Part shown: positions 3,657 through 8,725 of the stretch, in pieces
Layout: each line of letters opens with the position of its first letter
How positions within the stretch are numbered: position 1 is the stretch's first letter
NCBI GenBank assembly: GCA_028280845.1
Contig: JANQKZ010000028.1
Location: 1 to 59,672 of the forward strand
Reading direction: 5' to 3'
Origin: Opitutales bacterium
GTDB lineage: Bacteria > Verrucomicrobiota > Verrucomicrobiia > Opitutales > JABSRG01
Length of the DNA: 59,672 nt
Position numbers and translations under genes: made by a program
The notes under the pieces: model-generated
What the model was told of the DNA's origin: nothing
Database searches by the model: none
What the model saw: the letters and a program-made list of their open reading frames with translations, nothing else

Positions 3657-4214
3657 ATGTTTACCTACCCCATCCAGATCAAAGGCCTCTACCGCGCGCC
3701 CGAGCACATTTACTTTGGACGCAAAGCTTTGGGCCCCGGCGAAGACAACCTGGAACCCATGGAGAGCCTGGATCTTGTCGAGCACCAGGGCATCATCGGC
3801 GATCGCTTCTTCGGCAATGGCCCGGAGTTCAACGGACATATCACCTTTTTCGCTTGGGAGGTCTATCAAGAACTCATTCAATCGAATATCCCCCAGCGAA
3901 ATCCTGCAAATATCAATCCCGGCGTCCTTCGTCGCAATGTGATTATCGAAGGAGTGGACTTGCGGTCTCTCTTTGGCCAGCCCTTCCACATAGGGAACAT
4001 TGCCTTCCAGGGGACAATCCATTGTGCCCCCTGCCAGTGGATGAACCATGCCTACGGCGAAGGGGCCCTCACCGTCCTCCATGGTCGGGGTGGCTTGCGG
4101 GCCCAGGTGAAATCCAGCGGCACGTTAACCCCGGGAGCGCATACCTTATCCACCGACACTCCTTTCGACCCGAAAGACGCTGCTGCTCGCGTCACTCCAC
4201 CTCAATTGCCGTAG
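3657..4214 (+). CDS. MOSC-domain protein
   Basis: A 185-residue protein that reads as a single MOSC domain: an N-terminal 'I..LYRAPEH...GR' strand, an acidic segment leading to GIIGDRFFG (about residue 45), GHITFFAWE, a GVLRRNVIIEG segment near residue 95 and the cysteine segment CAPCQWM near 125. MOSC domains occur in molybdenum-cofactor sulfurases and mARC-type enzymes, where the conserved cysteine handles sulfur. A stand-alone MOSC protein is usually of unknown substrate. Its last 23 bp overlap the 3' end of the convergent sigma-54 activator gene, so the extreme C-terminus (after about residue 165) may not be conserved. Confidence 0.8.
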   Translation: MFTYPIQIKGLYRAPEHIYFGRKALGPGEDNLEPMESLDLVEHQGIIGDRFFGNGPEFNGHITFFAWEVYQELIQSNIPQRNPANINPGVLRRNVIIEGVDLRSLFGQPFHIGNIAFQGTIHCAPCQWMNHAYGEGALTVLHGRGGLRAQVKSSGTLTPGAHTLSTDTPFDPKDAAARVTPPQLP

Positions 4215-5769
4215 CAGCAGTGTTAGCCCAAGCTGGCCAGGCTCCCAAGACATATTTGCGGGCCGTTCGACGATCCACCTGTAAGACCTGCGAGCATCGC
4301 TCGTAGCTTCCGTGCACCCGGTAAAGCTGCTTCGCATAGCCGTGGAGAAGCTCATTCTGTGACAGCTCCCCAGCTTGAGCGGCTTCCCAGAACCCCGTGG
4401 TTTCTGTCCGTGCTGGATCCTCGAAACGCGGAGGGTAGTAGGTCCCATGAACCAGAATGTTGCGTACACATTGTTCCAACTCCCTGAAGTTACCCGGCCA
4501 GGCATAATCCAACGAAATTTCTTTCTGTATCCAATCCATACTCTCGGCGGCCAGGGCTTGCGACTCCACGCCTCCTCCCACTCGATCCGCAATGTGTTCG
4601 ACAAAGGATGCCAGGGCATCCGGCGAGTCGTCCAGGATCGCCCGCAGGGAGGGCGTTTCGACCATATCTGCGCACAACCGAAAATATAGATCCTCCCGGA
4701 ATCGACCCTCACGGATTTCTTGCCCAAGGTTGCGGTTCGTTGCCGCGATAATTTTCCCGGCAAACGGCTTCAACTGAGTGTCACCCAAAGGCTGGAAACT
4801 CCGGTCCTGAATTACACGAAGCAGCTTGACCTGGATATCCGGCTCAGTCTCACCGATTTCATCCAGAAATACGACCCCATATGCCCCTGCGGCTTCCAGG
4901 TAACCGATCCGCTTTTCCAGGGCTCCGGTGAAGGCTCCTTTTCGATGTCCAAACAGCTCAGATTCGATCAGGGTCTTAGACAATGCAGACAGATTTACCG
5001 GCAAAAAGACATCGTGGAAATTCTCTACAAAGGTGCCCCGATCCACATCATAGGGAATAAATTGAGACCATCCGATTCCTCGGGCAACCAGTTCTTTTCC
5101 GGACCCGGACGGCCCGGTAATCAAGGTCGCGATGTCGCTCATCCCGCGGTGCAACCCGCGGAGATAACGGCTCATATCCCGACTGAAGATGCTATCCCAC
5201 ACACGGGCTCGCATCTCCAGCGACAAACGGCTTCCGCCCGTCACGCTATGGAAGATGTGAAAGAAAGCCCGCCGAATCTGGAAACTGAAGGCAAACCAGA
5301 GCGATAACGGAAACTCCAGCTCCTCCACCTTGCGGAGATCTTTCATCCAGGTATGCAAACGGGTCTCCATTTCGCGATACACAGCTCCCAAATTGACGAC
5401 CCCCTCCCCGCGGTGATGCCGCTCAATCTGCTGATCCAGTTTACTCGTCTGTTCATGGAAGATCTGCCAATACACCACGAACTCGTAGAGCTTCAATTCC
5501 TCCACCTTCGGTCGAACACCTCCCGCTTCCCACCGATACCTCCATTGCGTCAACAGATGATGACTCAGCCCCACCAGGGCCTCCATATTGGGACTGAACC
5601 GGGGATGATAGGACCCGCCTGCTTTGGTAAAGGGCTGCCATCGATCCCCCAACAACGCTCGCTCTAATTCCATCCGCCTCGCTCGAAAAGGATTGCAGTA
5701 GATGAGGTCACGCAACCGCTCTCCCTGCTCGCGCTCCTCCTTCCGCATCCATGATTCAGCTCGTTTCAT
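4192..5769 (-). CDS. Sigma-54-dependent transcriptional activator
   Basis: The 525-residue protein has an N-terminal region of about 215 residues that I do not recognise (it is not an obvious receiver, PAS or GAF domain). A sigma-54 interaction AAA+ domain follows, with Walker A GPSGSGKELVARG near residue 220, the GAFTGA loop (HRKGAFTGALEKR), Walker B VVFLDEIGETEPD and the arginine-finger region FREDLYFRL. The C-terminus (AKQLYRVHGSYERCSQVLQV...RRTARKYV) resembles a Fis-type helix-turn-helix. Intact GAFTGA argues for a true activator of sigma-54 RNA polymerase. It is divergent from the VIT/vWA gene across an AT-rich, palindrome-rich gap. The unknown N-terminal domain should be its sensor; the target is not established. 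Confidence 0.85.
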   Translation of the reverse strand: MKRAESWMRKEEREQGERLRDLIYCNPFRARRMELERALLGDRWQPFTKAGGSYHPRFSPNMEALVGLSHHLLTQWRYRWEAGGVRPKVEELKLYEFVVYWQIFHEQTSKLDQQIERHHRGEGVVNLGAVYREMETRLHTWMKDLRKVEELEFPLSLWFAFSFQIRRAFFHIFHSVTGGSRLSLEMRARVWDSIFSRDMSRYLRGLHRGMSDIATLITGPSGSGKELVARGIGWSQFIPYDVDRGTFVENFHDVFLPVNLSALSKTLIESELFGHRKGAFTGALEKRIGYLEAAGAYGVVFLDEIGETEPDIQVKLLRVIQDRSFQPLGDTQLKPFAGKIIAATNRNLGQEIREGRFREDLYFRLCADMVETPSLRAILDDSPDALASFVEHIADRVGGGVESQALAAESMDWIQKEISLDYAWPGNFRELEQCVRNILVHGTYYPPRFEDPARTETTGFWEAAQAGELSQNELLHGYAKQLYRVHGSYERCSQVLQVDRRTARKYVLGAWPAWANTAATAIEVE

Positions 5770-5942
5770 TATACATTTTTTGTATATTTAGATATACAAT
5801 TTGTGTATTTTCACAGATTATGGAAGTCCATTAAAATTTAGGTATATTTTTTAAATATCTTTTAATCAATACCTTATAAAATTATTAAAATGCATTGGCA
5901 TAGGTCATGATGAATAGGACCTGAATCACAACTCTATTCATC
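5770..5942. promoter_or_regulatory. AT-rich divergent promoter region with nested inverted repeats
   Basis: This 173-bp gap separates the sigma-54 activator (minus) from the VIT/vWA gene (plus) and is far more AT-rich than its neighbours. Right at the activator start, 5781-5798 is an inverted repeat with arms TGTATAT and ATATACA around TTAG. The flanking half-sites (ATACA before it, TGTGTAT after it) can pair with the same arms, giving three overlapping dyads between about 5770 and 5810. This looks like an operator cluster, perhaps for autoregulation of the activator. A TTGGCAT at 5895-5901 resembles half of a -24/-12 promoter, but the second half is poor. Confidence 0.5.
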
Positions 5943-7970
5943 ATGAACACAAACAAATACAAAATCGCCACTCGGATCCCTCTCCTGCTGGGTATCCTGT
6001 TTTTATGTCTGGGCAGAGGAATGCTCCACGGGGCCGGCACCGTCACCCCCACCAATGCGGCCTACCAGCCCATGGAAATCCGGGATCACCAGGTTAATGT
6101 CACCCTGAACAATGGGTTTGCCCAAACCGAAGTAATCCAGGAATTCTTCAACCCCAATCCGGATACCCTCGAGGCCATCTACACCTTTCCGGTTCCCCAA
6201 CATGCCAGCCTTTCCGAAGTCACCATCTGGGCAGGCGAGAAGGAACTCCAGGGTGAGGTCCTGCCCAGACAGGAAGCCGATCGAATCTACGAAGAGGAGG
6301 TAGCCCAGGGAAATTCGGCCGGAAAAGCATCCCGCGAATCCTACCAACGGTTTGAATTTCAGGTCTACCCGGTACCGGCGCAATCCAGTGTTCGTATGCG
6401 GGTCGTTTATTATCAACCCCTCGAGCTAGATACTGGCGTCGGACGTTACTTGTATCCCCTGGAGGAAGGAAATACAGACGAAGCCGCCCTCTCCTTCTGG
6501 ACTCAAAACCAGAAGGTGGACGGCAACTTCAGCATCCGCGTCACCCTCAAATCAGCTTGGGCCATTGCCGATATCCGGACTCCGGGATACGCCGGCGCCC
6601 AATCTACGGATGAACACGGAAACATCGTCTTCGAATACCAAAACCAGACCGGCGACTTGAACCAGGACTTCCTCCTCTATTACCGCCTGGTCGATGATCT
6701 TCCAGGTCGGGTCGAAGTCATTCCCTACCGGGATGCCTCGGATAAGCCCGGAAGCTTCATGATGATCGTCACCCCGGGAATTGATTTACAGCCACTTTCC
6801 GGTGGAGCGGACTACGTGTTCGTCCTCGATGTGTCCGGCAGCATGGATGGCAAGCTGCATACCCTCGTTAAAGGTATCGAAAAAGCCCTCACTCAGATGC
6901 AACCCCAGGATCGTTTTCGCGTAGTCGCCTTTAACAATAATGCCTTCCATGTCATCGAATCCTGGACCCCAGCCACCTCGGAAAGTGTGGAACACGCTCT
7001 CGGAGTGCTCCGGCAGCTTCAGTCGAATGGAGGAACCAATGTCTATGAAGGCCTTCAACTCGGGCTGAAAAAACTCGACGACGACCGGGCTACCAGCCTG
7101 ATCCTCGTCACCGACGGCGTGACCAACCAAGGGATTGTCGACCCCGCTCGTTTTAGAGATCTGATGCAAAAACAGGATATCCGCGTCTTCGGGTTTCTGA
7201 TGGGAAATAGCAGCAACTGGCCCCTCATGGAAGTGATCACTGAGGCGAGCGGTGGATTTTATAAAGCCGTTTCCAACAGTGATGACATCGTCGGACAAAT
7301 CATCCTGGCAAAAAACAAGGTCCTCTATGAGGCTCTTCATGATGCCCAATTGGAAATATCAGGCGGAGATACTTTTGATCTGTCTCAAATGCGGATCGGT
7401 AAGATCTACCGAGGTCAGCAACTCGTCTTTTTCGGGCGTTATGATCAACCAGGCCAGGCTCGCCTTACCTTGAAAGCCCGTCTCACTGGCGAGGATAAAG
7501 TCTACCAGACGGTGGTGGATTTTCCAGAAACCGATACCGCCAATCCTGAAATCGAACGCCTCTGGGCCATGGATCGCATCGAAGCCATCGAACATGCCGA
7601 ACGCCTGGGTGATATCCCCGCAGGGGAATCCGAATCTGTCATCACCTCGATCGCGGTGGAATATCAATTGGTCACAGACCACACCTCCATGATCGTGCTC
7701 GATGACGAAACCTTCCAGCGTCATGGCATCGAGCGACGCAACCGGGAACGGGTCCAGCGGGAACGCCAGGCTCAAGCGCAACGCCAATTAGCTGCCCCGG
7801 TCAACCGCCGGGCAGATACCAACCAACCCATGTTCAAACAAAAGGCCCCCCGGCCCAGTTTCGGTGGAGGAGGTGGAGCCATCGACCCCTTTTCCGCCCT
7901 GGCTGCTTTGTTCATGATAACCCTGTCCGTTTTAGGCAAGAAACTGGGATTGTCGAAGAAAGGGGACTAG
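5943..7970 (+). CDS. VIT and vWA domain surface protein with a GlyGly-CTERM-like tail
   Basis: A 675-residue secreted protein: signal peptide (LLLGILFLCLGRGMLHGAG), a VIT (inter-alpha-trypsin) domain at about residues 40-165, and a von Willebrand A domain at about 280-460 whose MIDAS begins YVFVLDVSGSMD (DxSxS). The C-terminus is a Gly run (SFGGGGGAID), a hydrophobic helix of about 18 residues, and a basic end (KKLGLSKKGD). That order of Gly run, helix and basic residues is the layout of GlyGly-CTERM sorting signals, which rhombosortases process. A rhombosortase-like gene lies 110 bp downstream, supporting a dedicated enzyme-substrate pair. VIT/vWA proteins usually mediate adhesion or protein contacts at the cell surface. 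It could be controlled by the divergent sigma-54 activator. Confidence 0.85.
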   Translation: MNTNKYKIATRIPLLLGILFLCLGRGMLHGAGTVTPTNAAYQPMEIRDHQVNVTLNNGFAQTEVIQEFFNPNPDTLEAIYTFPVPQHASLSEVTIWAGEKELQGEVLPRQEADRIYEEEVAQGNSAGKASRESYQRFEFQVYPVPAQSSVRMRVVYYQPLELDTGVGRYLYPLEEGNTDEAALSFWTQNQKVDGNFSIRVTLKSAWAIADIRTPGYAGAQSTDEHGNIVFEYQNQTGDLNQDFLLYYRLVDDLPGRVEVIPYRDASDKPGSFMMIVTPGIDLQPLSGGADYVFVLDVSGSMDGKLHTLVKGIEKALTQMQPQDRFRVVAFNNNAFHVIESWTPATSESVEHALGVLRQLQSNGGTNVYEGLQLGLKKLDDDRATSLILVTDGVTNQGIVDPARFRDLMQKQDIRVFGFLMGNSSNWPLMEVITEASGGFYKAVSNSDDIVGQIILAKNKVLYEALHDAQLEISGGDTFDLSQMRIGKIYRGQQLVFFGRYDQPGQARLTLKARLTGEDKVYQTVVDFPETDTANPEIERLWAMDRIEAIEHAERLGDIPAGESESVITSIAVEYQLVTDHTSMIVLDDETFQRHGIERRNRERVQRERQAQAQRQLAAPVNRRADTNQPMFKQKAPRPSFGGGGGAIDPFSALAALFMITLSVLGKKLGLSKKGD

Positions 7971-8080
7971 GCCCTGTTCCAAGACGGAAAGGGCATACAC
8001 CGGAGGGGGAGCCCAACTCCCCCTCCTTTCTGTCTACACCCCACCCTTCCCGTTTACTCCCCCACATACCGACGCATACC

Positions 8081-8725
8081 ATGTTCAAACACGCTCCCAT
8101 CACCTGGTCGCTTTCCCTCATTGCCGTGGGCCTCCATCTCGTAACCATGGCCAATCCCTCCCTCCTCACGGCCCTGGAACTGCGGACCCAGGGACCTCAG
8201 CTCTGGGAAGGATGGCGCTGGCTTACCGGTCACTTCGTCCACTTTAATCACAGCCACTTCATCTGGGACCTCGCGGTATTCCTTCCCCTCGGCTGCATCG
8301 TTGAAAAGCGCACATCCCAGGGGTTCGGACGCTTTATCGTTTCGAGCGCCCTCGCCATTACCGGGGCCGTCATCCTCTTCCTTCCCGATCTGGGGAGTTA
8401 TCGGGGACTATCCGGACTGGATTCTGCCCTCTTTATTGCCCTTGCTATTCAGGAACTGCGGAACTCCAAGAACCGGGCCCAAAGCATCTCAATTCTCTGG
8501 GGTATCGCCCTGGTCGGCTTCTCCATGAAAATCCTCTTTGAAATCATGACCGGACACGCAATGTTCGCCGGCGACCTGGGTCCAGGTGTCATCACCGTTC
8601 CCCTCGCCCATCTCGTAGGGGCTGCCGTCGCCCTGGCTTGGTTTACCCAACCGCGCAAAGCGCCAATCCCGCTTTCACCTCTATCGACAAAATCCTTCCA
8701 GGGGCATGCCCGGTCAACCGACTGA
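8081..8725 (+). CDS. Rhomboid-family intramembrane protease, rhombosortase-like
   Basis: A 214-residue polytopic membrane protein. TM2 carries GHFVHFNHSHFIWD (residues 50-63), TM4 has the serine motif GLSG (Ser111), and TM6 has AHLVGAA (His177), so the Ser/His dyad of rhomboid proteases is present. The position usually occupied by Asn after the TM2 histidines is Asp here. Short length and compact loops resemble the rhombosortase branch (RrtA), which cleaves GlyGly-CTERM tails. The gene directly upstream encodes a protein with such a tail, which is the main support for the sub-family call. The last 25 residues are hydrophilic and probably cytoplasmic. Confidence 0.75.
   Translation: MFKHAPITWSLSLIAVGLHLVTMANPSLLTALELRTQGPQLWEGWRWLTGHFVHFNHSHFIWDLAVFLPLGCIVEKRTSQGFGRFIVSSALAITGAVILFLPDLGSYRGLSGLDSALFIALAIQELRNSKNRAQSISILWGIALVGFSMKILFEIMTGHAMFAGDLGPGVITVPLAHLVGAAVALAWFTQPRKAPIPLSPLSTKSFQGHARSTD

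What the first reader, a model, noticed from the sequence alone, without database searches (positions are those of the whole stretch)
5943..8725. Dedicated rhombosortase and VIT/vWA substrate pair beside a sigma-54 activator
The vWA protein ends in a Gly run, a membrane helix and basic residues, the layout of GlyGly-CTERM signals. The next gene is a small rhomboid protease with its Ser/His dyad intact. VIT/vWA proteins with dedicated sortases are known in marine proteobacteria; an analogous pair using a rhomboid enzyme, with its own sigma-54 regulator carrying an unknown sensor domain, looks like an independent surface-display module.
Basis: partly seen in the sequence, partly recalled or inferred. 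Interest (0 to 1): 0.64.

Follow-up and report, generated by a model that had tools for sequence, protein, structure and literature searches.

The report
Sigma-54-controlled rhombosortase and VIT/vWA module
A bacterium keeps, side by side, a gene for a large adhesin-like (VIT/vWA) protein with a membrane tail, the membrane protease predicted to cut that tail, and a switch protein predicted to turn both on; the same set recurs in many bacterial phyla, as an unusual version of a tail-cutting system first described in 2011.

Summary
The finding is real. The window encodes a VIT/vWA protein with a C-terminal GGGGGAIDP + transmembrane + basic tail, a rhombosortase directly downstream (TIGR03902, 92.9 bits against a cut-off of 84), and a divergent sigma-54 activator. 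In the window's genome no second tail of this type, VIT protein or rhombosortase over the cut-off was found, so the pair is one-to-one as far as testable. The pair is strongly conserved: 20/20 orthologues in the same order and 72/80 loci sampled from more than ten phyla have an adjacent rhombosortase; the other genomes tested have one elsewhere. About two thirds of loci with enough upstream sequence carry the same activator, and 45/60 of those show a sigma-54 promoter before the VIT gene, against 3% of control genes. Rhombosortases beside VIT genes form one well-supported branch. The principle (adjacent one-target rhombosortases; vault/VIT proteins bearing GlyGly-CTERM, LPXTG or PEP-CTERM) was published by Haft and Varghese in 2011. 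What appears new is the sigma-54 activator with an all-helical N-terminal domain that matched nothing, a GGGA[ILMVF] tail that the standard GlyGly-CTERM model misses, and an enzyme lacking the signature histidine after the catalytic serine. Cleavage and surface display are inferred, not shown.

The parts
4192..5769 (-). sigma-54-dependent transcriptional activator (525 aa): residues 1-208 an all-helical domain with no known match, 211-440 AAA+ with GAFTGA loop, C-terminal DNA-binding helix region
   Evidence: Sigma54_activat PF00158 153.6 bits; best NCBIfam RtcR, 207 bits, far below its 650 cut-off; N-terminal model pLDDT 90, no PDB or Pfam match; same protein at 60 of 94 VIT loci with enough upstream sequence
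5770..5815 (.). two tandem 23-nt copies holding TATACA-N5-TGTAT dyads next to the activator start: candidate activator binding site
   Evidence: other modules show ATAAAATGTC-like repeats at the same place (by eye); binding not tested
5896..5911 (+). sigma-54 promoter-like element TGGCATAGGTCATGAT, 47 nt before the VIT start codon (-12 is GA, not the usual GC)
   Evidence: orthologous promoters nearer to consensus in 45/60 activator-bearing modules vs 3.3% of controls; rpoN present in the genome
5905..5946 (.). perfect 13-bp inverted repeat TCATGATGAATAG / CTATTCATCATGA spanning the -12 region and the start codon
   Evidence: not seen in other modules; role unknown
5943..7970 (+). VIT/vWA protein (675 aa), signal-peptide-like N-terminus, VIT 47-156, vWA about 290-448, proposed substrate
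7863..7967 (+). C-terminal sorting signal: GGGGGAIDP, hydrophobic stretch, basic end
   Evidence: 39.4 bits with a tail model of the family; GG.A motif invariant in 24 aligned tails
8002..8026 (+). strong terminator-like hairpin between the two genes (10 pairs, then T-rich)
   Evidence: seldom present in other modules
8081..8725 (+). rhombosortase (214 aa): WRWLT, YRGLSGLDS with catalytic Ser111, AHLVG with His177
   Evidence: TIGR03902 92.9 bits, cut-off 84; model pLDDT 92 matching GlpG

Best explanation
A self-contained sorting module. The activator, on an unknown cytoplasmic cue read by its helical N-terminal domain, opens a sigma-54 promoter and drives the VIT/vWA gene and, by read-through or an extra promoter, the rhombosortase. 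The VIT/vWA protein is exported by Sec and held in the inner membrane by its C-terminal helix. The neighbouring rhombosortase cuts at the GGGA junction and, by analogy with VesB of Vibrio cholerae, passes the new C-terminus to an amine lipid head group, leaving a lipid-anchored VIT/vWA protein that moves to the outer surface, probably by type II secretion, and acts as a metal-dependent (MIDAS) adhesin or matrix protein. Shown by computation: gene identities, one-to-one pairing in this genome, conservation, family-level promoter enrichment, one rhombosortase lineage specific to VIT neighbours. Inferred: cleavage, lipid transfer, surface location, adhesin role, the signal sensed.
For: Curated rhombosortase hit; only one such tail, one VIT protein and one rhombosortase over the cut-off in the genome; adjacency 20/20 in the order and 72/80 across phyla; all eight genomes whose VIT gene lacks a visible neighbour have a rhombosortase elsewhere or on another contig, while only 38 of 387 genomes of the phylum carry one over the cut-off; VIT-adjacent rhombosortases form one branch with 100% SH-aLRT support; tail type and active-site motif change together: GPVG-type modules have SG..H enzymes, GGGA-type tails have non-His enzymes; sigma-54 promoters 45/60 vs 3.3% of 1238 controls; rpoN present. 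VesB cleavage after the second Gly, ethanolamine-lipid modification and T2SS export are experimental in PMC6219818.
Against: No experiment. The window's own promoter departs from consensus at -12 (GA for GC), and a similar match is expected 0.5 times by chance in a window this size. 34 of 94 VIT loci with enough upstream sequence have no such activator nearby. A terminator-like hairpin separates the two genes here. The best T2SS secretin match in the genome is below its curated cut-off (308 vs 351 bits), so the export route is not secured. Four Pelagicoccus-type VIT proteins (L136, L140, L164, L167) have lost the tail, three of them still beside a rhombosortase.
Confidence: 0.78

Rival explanations
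1. The rhombosortase simply removes the tail and releases the VIT/vWA protein into the periplasm or medium (shedding), with no lipid transfer and no surface anchoring.
For: Ordinary rhomboids hydrolyse; the enzyme lacks the His typical of rhombosortases; V. cholerae GlpG cleavage of VesB gives released protein (quoted).
Against: The enzyme passes the curated rhombosortase model, and its tail architecture is that of signals whose studied member ends in surface anchoring. Sister VIT proteins use sortase or exosortase tails, which are also anchoring routes.
Confidence: 0.15
2. The rhombosortase serves several proteins and the neighbourhood is incidental.
For: In most genomes with several GlyGly-CTERM proteins one rhombosortase serves many targets.
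Against: No second tail in this genome with either model; adjacency in nearly all loci; a rhombosortase lineage specific to VIT neighbours.
Confidence: 0.05
3. The activator belongs to another regulon and is beside the pair by chance.
For: Absent near 34 of 94 VIT loci; in L105 the same activator type stands next to a rhombotarget-lipoprotein/rhombosortase pair and an acyltransferase-like ORF instead of a VIT gene.
Against: Divergent position kept in 60 loci; sigma-54 promoter before the VIT gene in 45 of 60 of these vs 12 of 42 without the activator (Fisher p about 6e-6, related loci not independent).
Confidence: 0.08

Closest known systems
GlyGly-CTERM / rhombosortase dedicated pairs (Haft and Varghese 2011, PMC3237569; Opitutus terrae, Rhodopirellula baltica and others)
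   Same: Rhombosortase next to its single tailed target; vault (VIT/vWA) proteins already named among GlyGly-CTERM bearers
   Different: Tail here is GGGA[ILMVF] and missed by TIGR03501; enzyme has SG[LI]D[STCM] instead of SGxxH; a sigma-54 activator is part of the module, which I did not find mentioned in the parts read
V. cholerae RssP / VesB (PMC6219818)
   Same: Rhombosortase cleaving a Gly-rich, hydrophobic, basic C-terminal tail
   Different: RssP serves six GlyGly-CTERM proteins; cleavage and surface anchoring are experimentally shown there, not here
Marine proteobacterial dedicated sortase with target TIGR03788
   Same: VIT/vWA protein as dedicated target of an adjacent sorting enzyme; own regulators in that system (my own knowledge)
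   Different: Sortase and LPXTG instead of rhombosortase; window protein 211 bits, cut-off 552
XrtN / MSEP-CTERM VIT proteins (TIGR04477, TIGR04286)
   Same: VIT-domain proteins with a C-terminal sorting signal
   Different: Exosortase-type enzymes (my own knowledge); only weak matches here
Rhombotarget lipoprotein / rhombosortase pairs (TIGR04179)
   Same: Target and rhombosortase adjacent; seen in the same order
   Different: Lipoprotein target, different tail (GYTGGG) and different branches of the rhombosortase tree

Membership tests
Rhombosortase (TIGR03902) | Score above the curated cut-off of 84 bits | tested here: met
   92.9 bits
Rhombosortase (TIGR03902) | Rhomboid fold with Ser/His dyad | tested here: met
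   Ser111, His177 aligned with all homologues; model pLDDT 92 matches GlpG, probability 1.00
Rhombosortase (TIGR03902) | His four residues after the catalytic Ser (SGxxH), the published signature site | tested here: not met
   Window has SGLDS; 81 of 81 enzymes beside GGGA tails lack the His once misread L107 is set aside. The paper says virtually all, not all
Rhombosortase (TIGR03902) | WRxxS/T in loop 1; AHxxGxxxG in TM6 | tested here: inconclusive
   WRWLT present; TM6 is AHLVGAAVA, last Gly replaced by Ala
Rhombosortase (TIGR03902) | Cleaves the tail of its target | not testable with these tools
   needs experiment
GlyGly-CTERM (TIGR03501) | Score above the curated cut-off of 15.5 bits | tested here: not met
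   No match for the window protein; 1 of 27 homologues at E 0.098
GlyGly-CTERM (TIGR03501) | Tripartite Gly motif, TM helix, basic end at the extreme C-terminus, no Cys in the motif, target next to a rhombosortase when single | tested here: met
   sequence
Marine proteobacterial sortase target (TIGR03788) | Score above cut-off; LPXTG tail | tested here: not met
   211 vs 551.65 bits; no LPXTG in the protein
Sigma-54-dependent activator (bEBP) | Sigma54_activat AAA+ domain with GAFTGA | tested here: met
   PF00158 153.6 bits; GAFTGA in the alignment
RtcR RNA-repair regulator | Score above the NF038308 cut-off of 650 | tested here: not met
   207 bits, AAA+ part only

The most novel reading that the evidence does not exclude
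A separate rhombosortase subfamily (YRGLSGxD, no signature His) co-evolved one-to-one with a GGGA[ILMVF] tail on VIT/vWA proteins, with altered active-site chemistry or cleavage site, controlled by a new class of sigma-54 activator whose helical domain senses the state of the envelope or of the sorted protein itself.
Probability: 0.3. Interest if true: 0.62.

Novelty: new variant of a known kind. Interest (0 to 1): 0.46.

Why it matters
Sorting enzymes are usually studied where one enzyme serves many proteins. Here enzyme and single target are kept together across many phyla, so enzyme-tail specificity can be read from co-varying sequences and tested by swapping tails. VIT/vWA proteins are now seen as dedicated clients of sortases, exosortases and rhombosortases, which raises the question of what about them calls for a private enzyme. 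The sigma-54 activator offers a handle on when the module is made, and its N-terminal domain is uncharacterised by sequence and by the structure search done here.

Tried and rejected
Canonical GlyGly-CTERM tail: rejected by model score. Fold of the activator N-terminus: Foldseek gave no significant match, and VIA-align gave at most Z 5.1, uninformative for a helical domain; neither shows that the fold is new. RtcR identity: rejected, only the AAA+ part matches. A conserved 5' hairpin: the window's 13-bp inverted repeat is not shared by other modules. A conserved terminator between the genes: present here, seldom elsewhere. A strict Arg(-3)/Asp(+3) pair around the catalytic Ser: common and correlated, but with many exceptions and on related sequences, so only a hint. 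The myxosortase paper PMC10810001 is not held; PMC3237569 was read in parts 1-4 of 6.

Full report
What is there. The window carries a divergent pair of transcription units. On the minus strand, 4192-5769 encodes a sigma-54 activator; on the plus strand, 5943-7970 encodes a VIT/vWA protein and 8081-8725 a small rhomboid. The VIT/vWA protein has VIT (94.9 bits) and vWA domains, an intact MIDAS site that is invariant in 27 homologues, and ends in GGGGGAIDP, a hydrophobic stretch and basic residues. The rhomboid passes the curated rhombosortase cut-off (92.9 vs 84 bits); its model (pLDDT 92) matches GlpG.

Is the pair private in this genome? The 4.79 Mb assembly (97.7% complete) holds one VIT protein and four rhomboids, only one over the rhombosortase cut-off. 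A model of the family's tails finds the window protein at 39.4 bits and nothing else above 13.6 bits; the weak hits are not C-terminal tails. TIGR03501 finds nothing over its cut-off. So the relation is one enzyme to one target as far as these models can see; a very different tail would be missed.

Conservation. A protein search in the same order found 20 further orthologues at 50-59% identity; all 20 have a rhombosortase just downstream and 15 the divergent activator. A scan of named genomes found 166 relatives; in the best 80 a rhombosortase is adjacent in 72, in Verrucomicrobiota, Planctomycetota, Lentisphaerota, Kiritimatiellota, Acidobacteriota, Myxococcota, Thermodesulfobacteriota, Spirochaetota and others (many are metagenome bins whose labels may be wrong). 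In three of the eight others the contig ends close after the VIT gene; all eight genomes hold a rhombosortase elsewhere or on another contig, one of them below the cut-off. By contrast only 38 of 387 genomes of the phylum carry one over the cut-off. In a tree of 82 rhomboids, all VIT-adjacent enzymes fall on one side of a branch with 100% SH-aLRT support, together with the long-branched L105, apart from the enzymes beside other targets (quick method).

Enzyme and tail change together. Haft and Varghese found that a His four residues after the catalytic Ser is the best mark of rhombosortases (PMC3237569). The window enzyme has SGLDS, and none of 81 enzymes beside GGGA-type tails has the His. 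Modules whose tail reads G[ST]GPVG carry SG..H enzymes (L106's tail is on a second ORF; L107's tail was not readable). The GPVG group is one branch, so this is few events, not dozens.

Regulation. The activator has an intact GAFTGA motif and, at its N-terminus, about 205 residues that match no Pfam family; AlphaFold models it as all-helical with pLDDT 90, and no solved structure matched clearly. Of 94 VIT loci with at least 1.7 kb upstream, 60 have this activator. Scored against the -24/-12 consensus, 45 of 60 activator-bearing modules have a strong site in the 160 bp before the VIT gene, 12 of 42 without it, and 3.3% of 1238 other genes in the same loci. The window's own site, TGGCATAGGTCATGAT at 5896, is weaker, with GA at -12. 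Two 23-nt repeats with dyads sit next to the activator start, and repeats stand at the same place in other modules (by eye). The genome encodes rpoN.

Mechanism. In V. cholerae, rhombosortase exposes the second Gly of VesB, which is joined to a glycerophosphoethanolamine moiety before type II secretion and surface retention (PMC6219818). I propose the same route here, with the VIT/vWA protein as the only client. Cleavage, lipid transfer and surface location are inferred. The type II secretin of this genome is not secured (308 vs 351 bits).

What is known and what is not. One-target rhombosortases adjacent to their target, including Opitutus terrae and Rhodopirellula baltica, and vault-type proteins with GlyGly-CTERM, LPXTG or PEP-CTERM tails were all described in 2011. 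I found no description of the sigma-54 activator, of the GGGA tail class or of the His-less enzyme clade in the literature that could be searched, which excludes most subscription journals. I therefore call this a new variant of a known kind.

Noticed in passing
L140, L164, L167 (and L136): Verrucomicrobiae bacterium DG1235 and Pelagicoccus VIT/vWA proteins end in a conserved non-Gly C-terminus, three of them still beside a rhombosortase. DG1235 was listed in 2011 as having a rhombosortase but no recognised target.
   Followed up: partly
L096, L101, L115, L119, L120, L122: Opitutaceae and relatives carry further rhombosortases near Ig-domain proteins, mostly matrixin metalloproteases and one pectate lyase, with GGGGGG(A/S)PS.WF tails: a second adjacent pairing that I did not find named.
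   Followed up: partly
L105 5260-9330: The same activator type stands beside an acyltransferase-like ORF, a rhombotarget lipoprotein (TIGR04179) and a rhombosortase, with no VIT gene: possibly a swapped target.
   Followed up: partly
window 5905-5946: Perfect 13-bp inverted repeat overlapping the -12 region and the VIT start codon, not shared with other modules.
   Followed up: yes
window 8408-8425 and the matching sites of rhombosortases beside VIT genes: Arg three residues before and Asp three residues after the catalytic Ser tend to occur together (66 with both, 11 with neither, 14 with one), a possible buried ion pair near the active site.
   Followed up: partly
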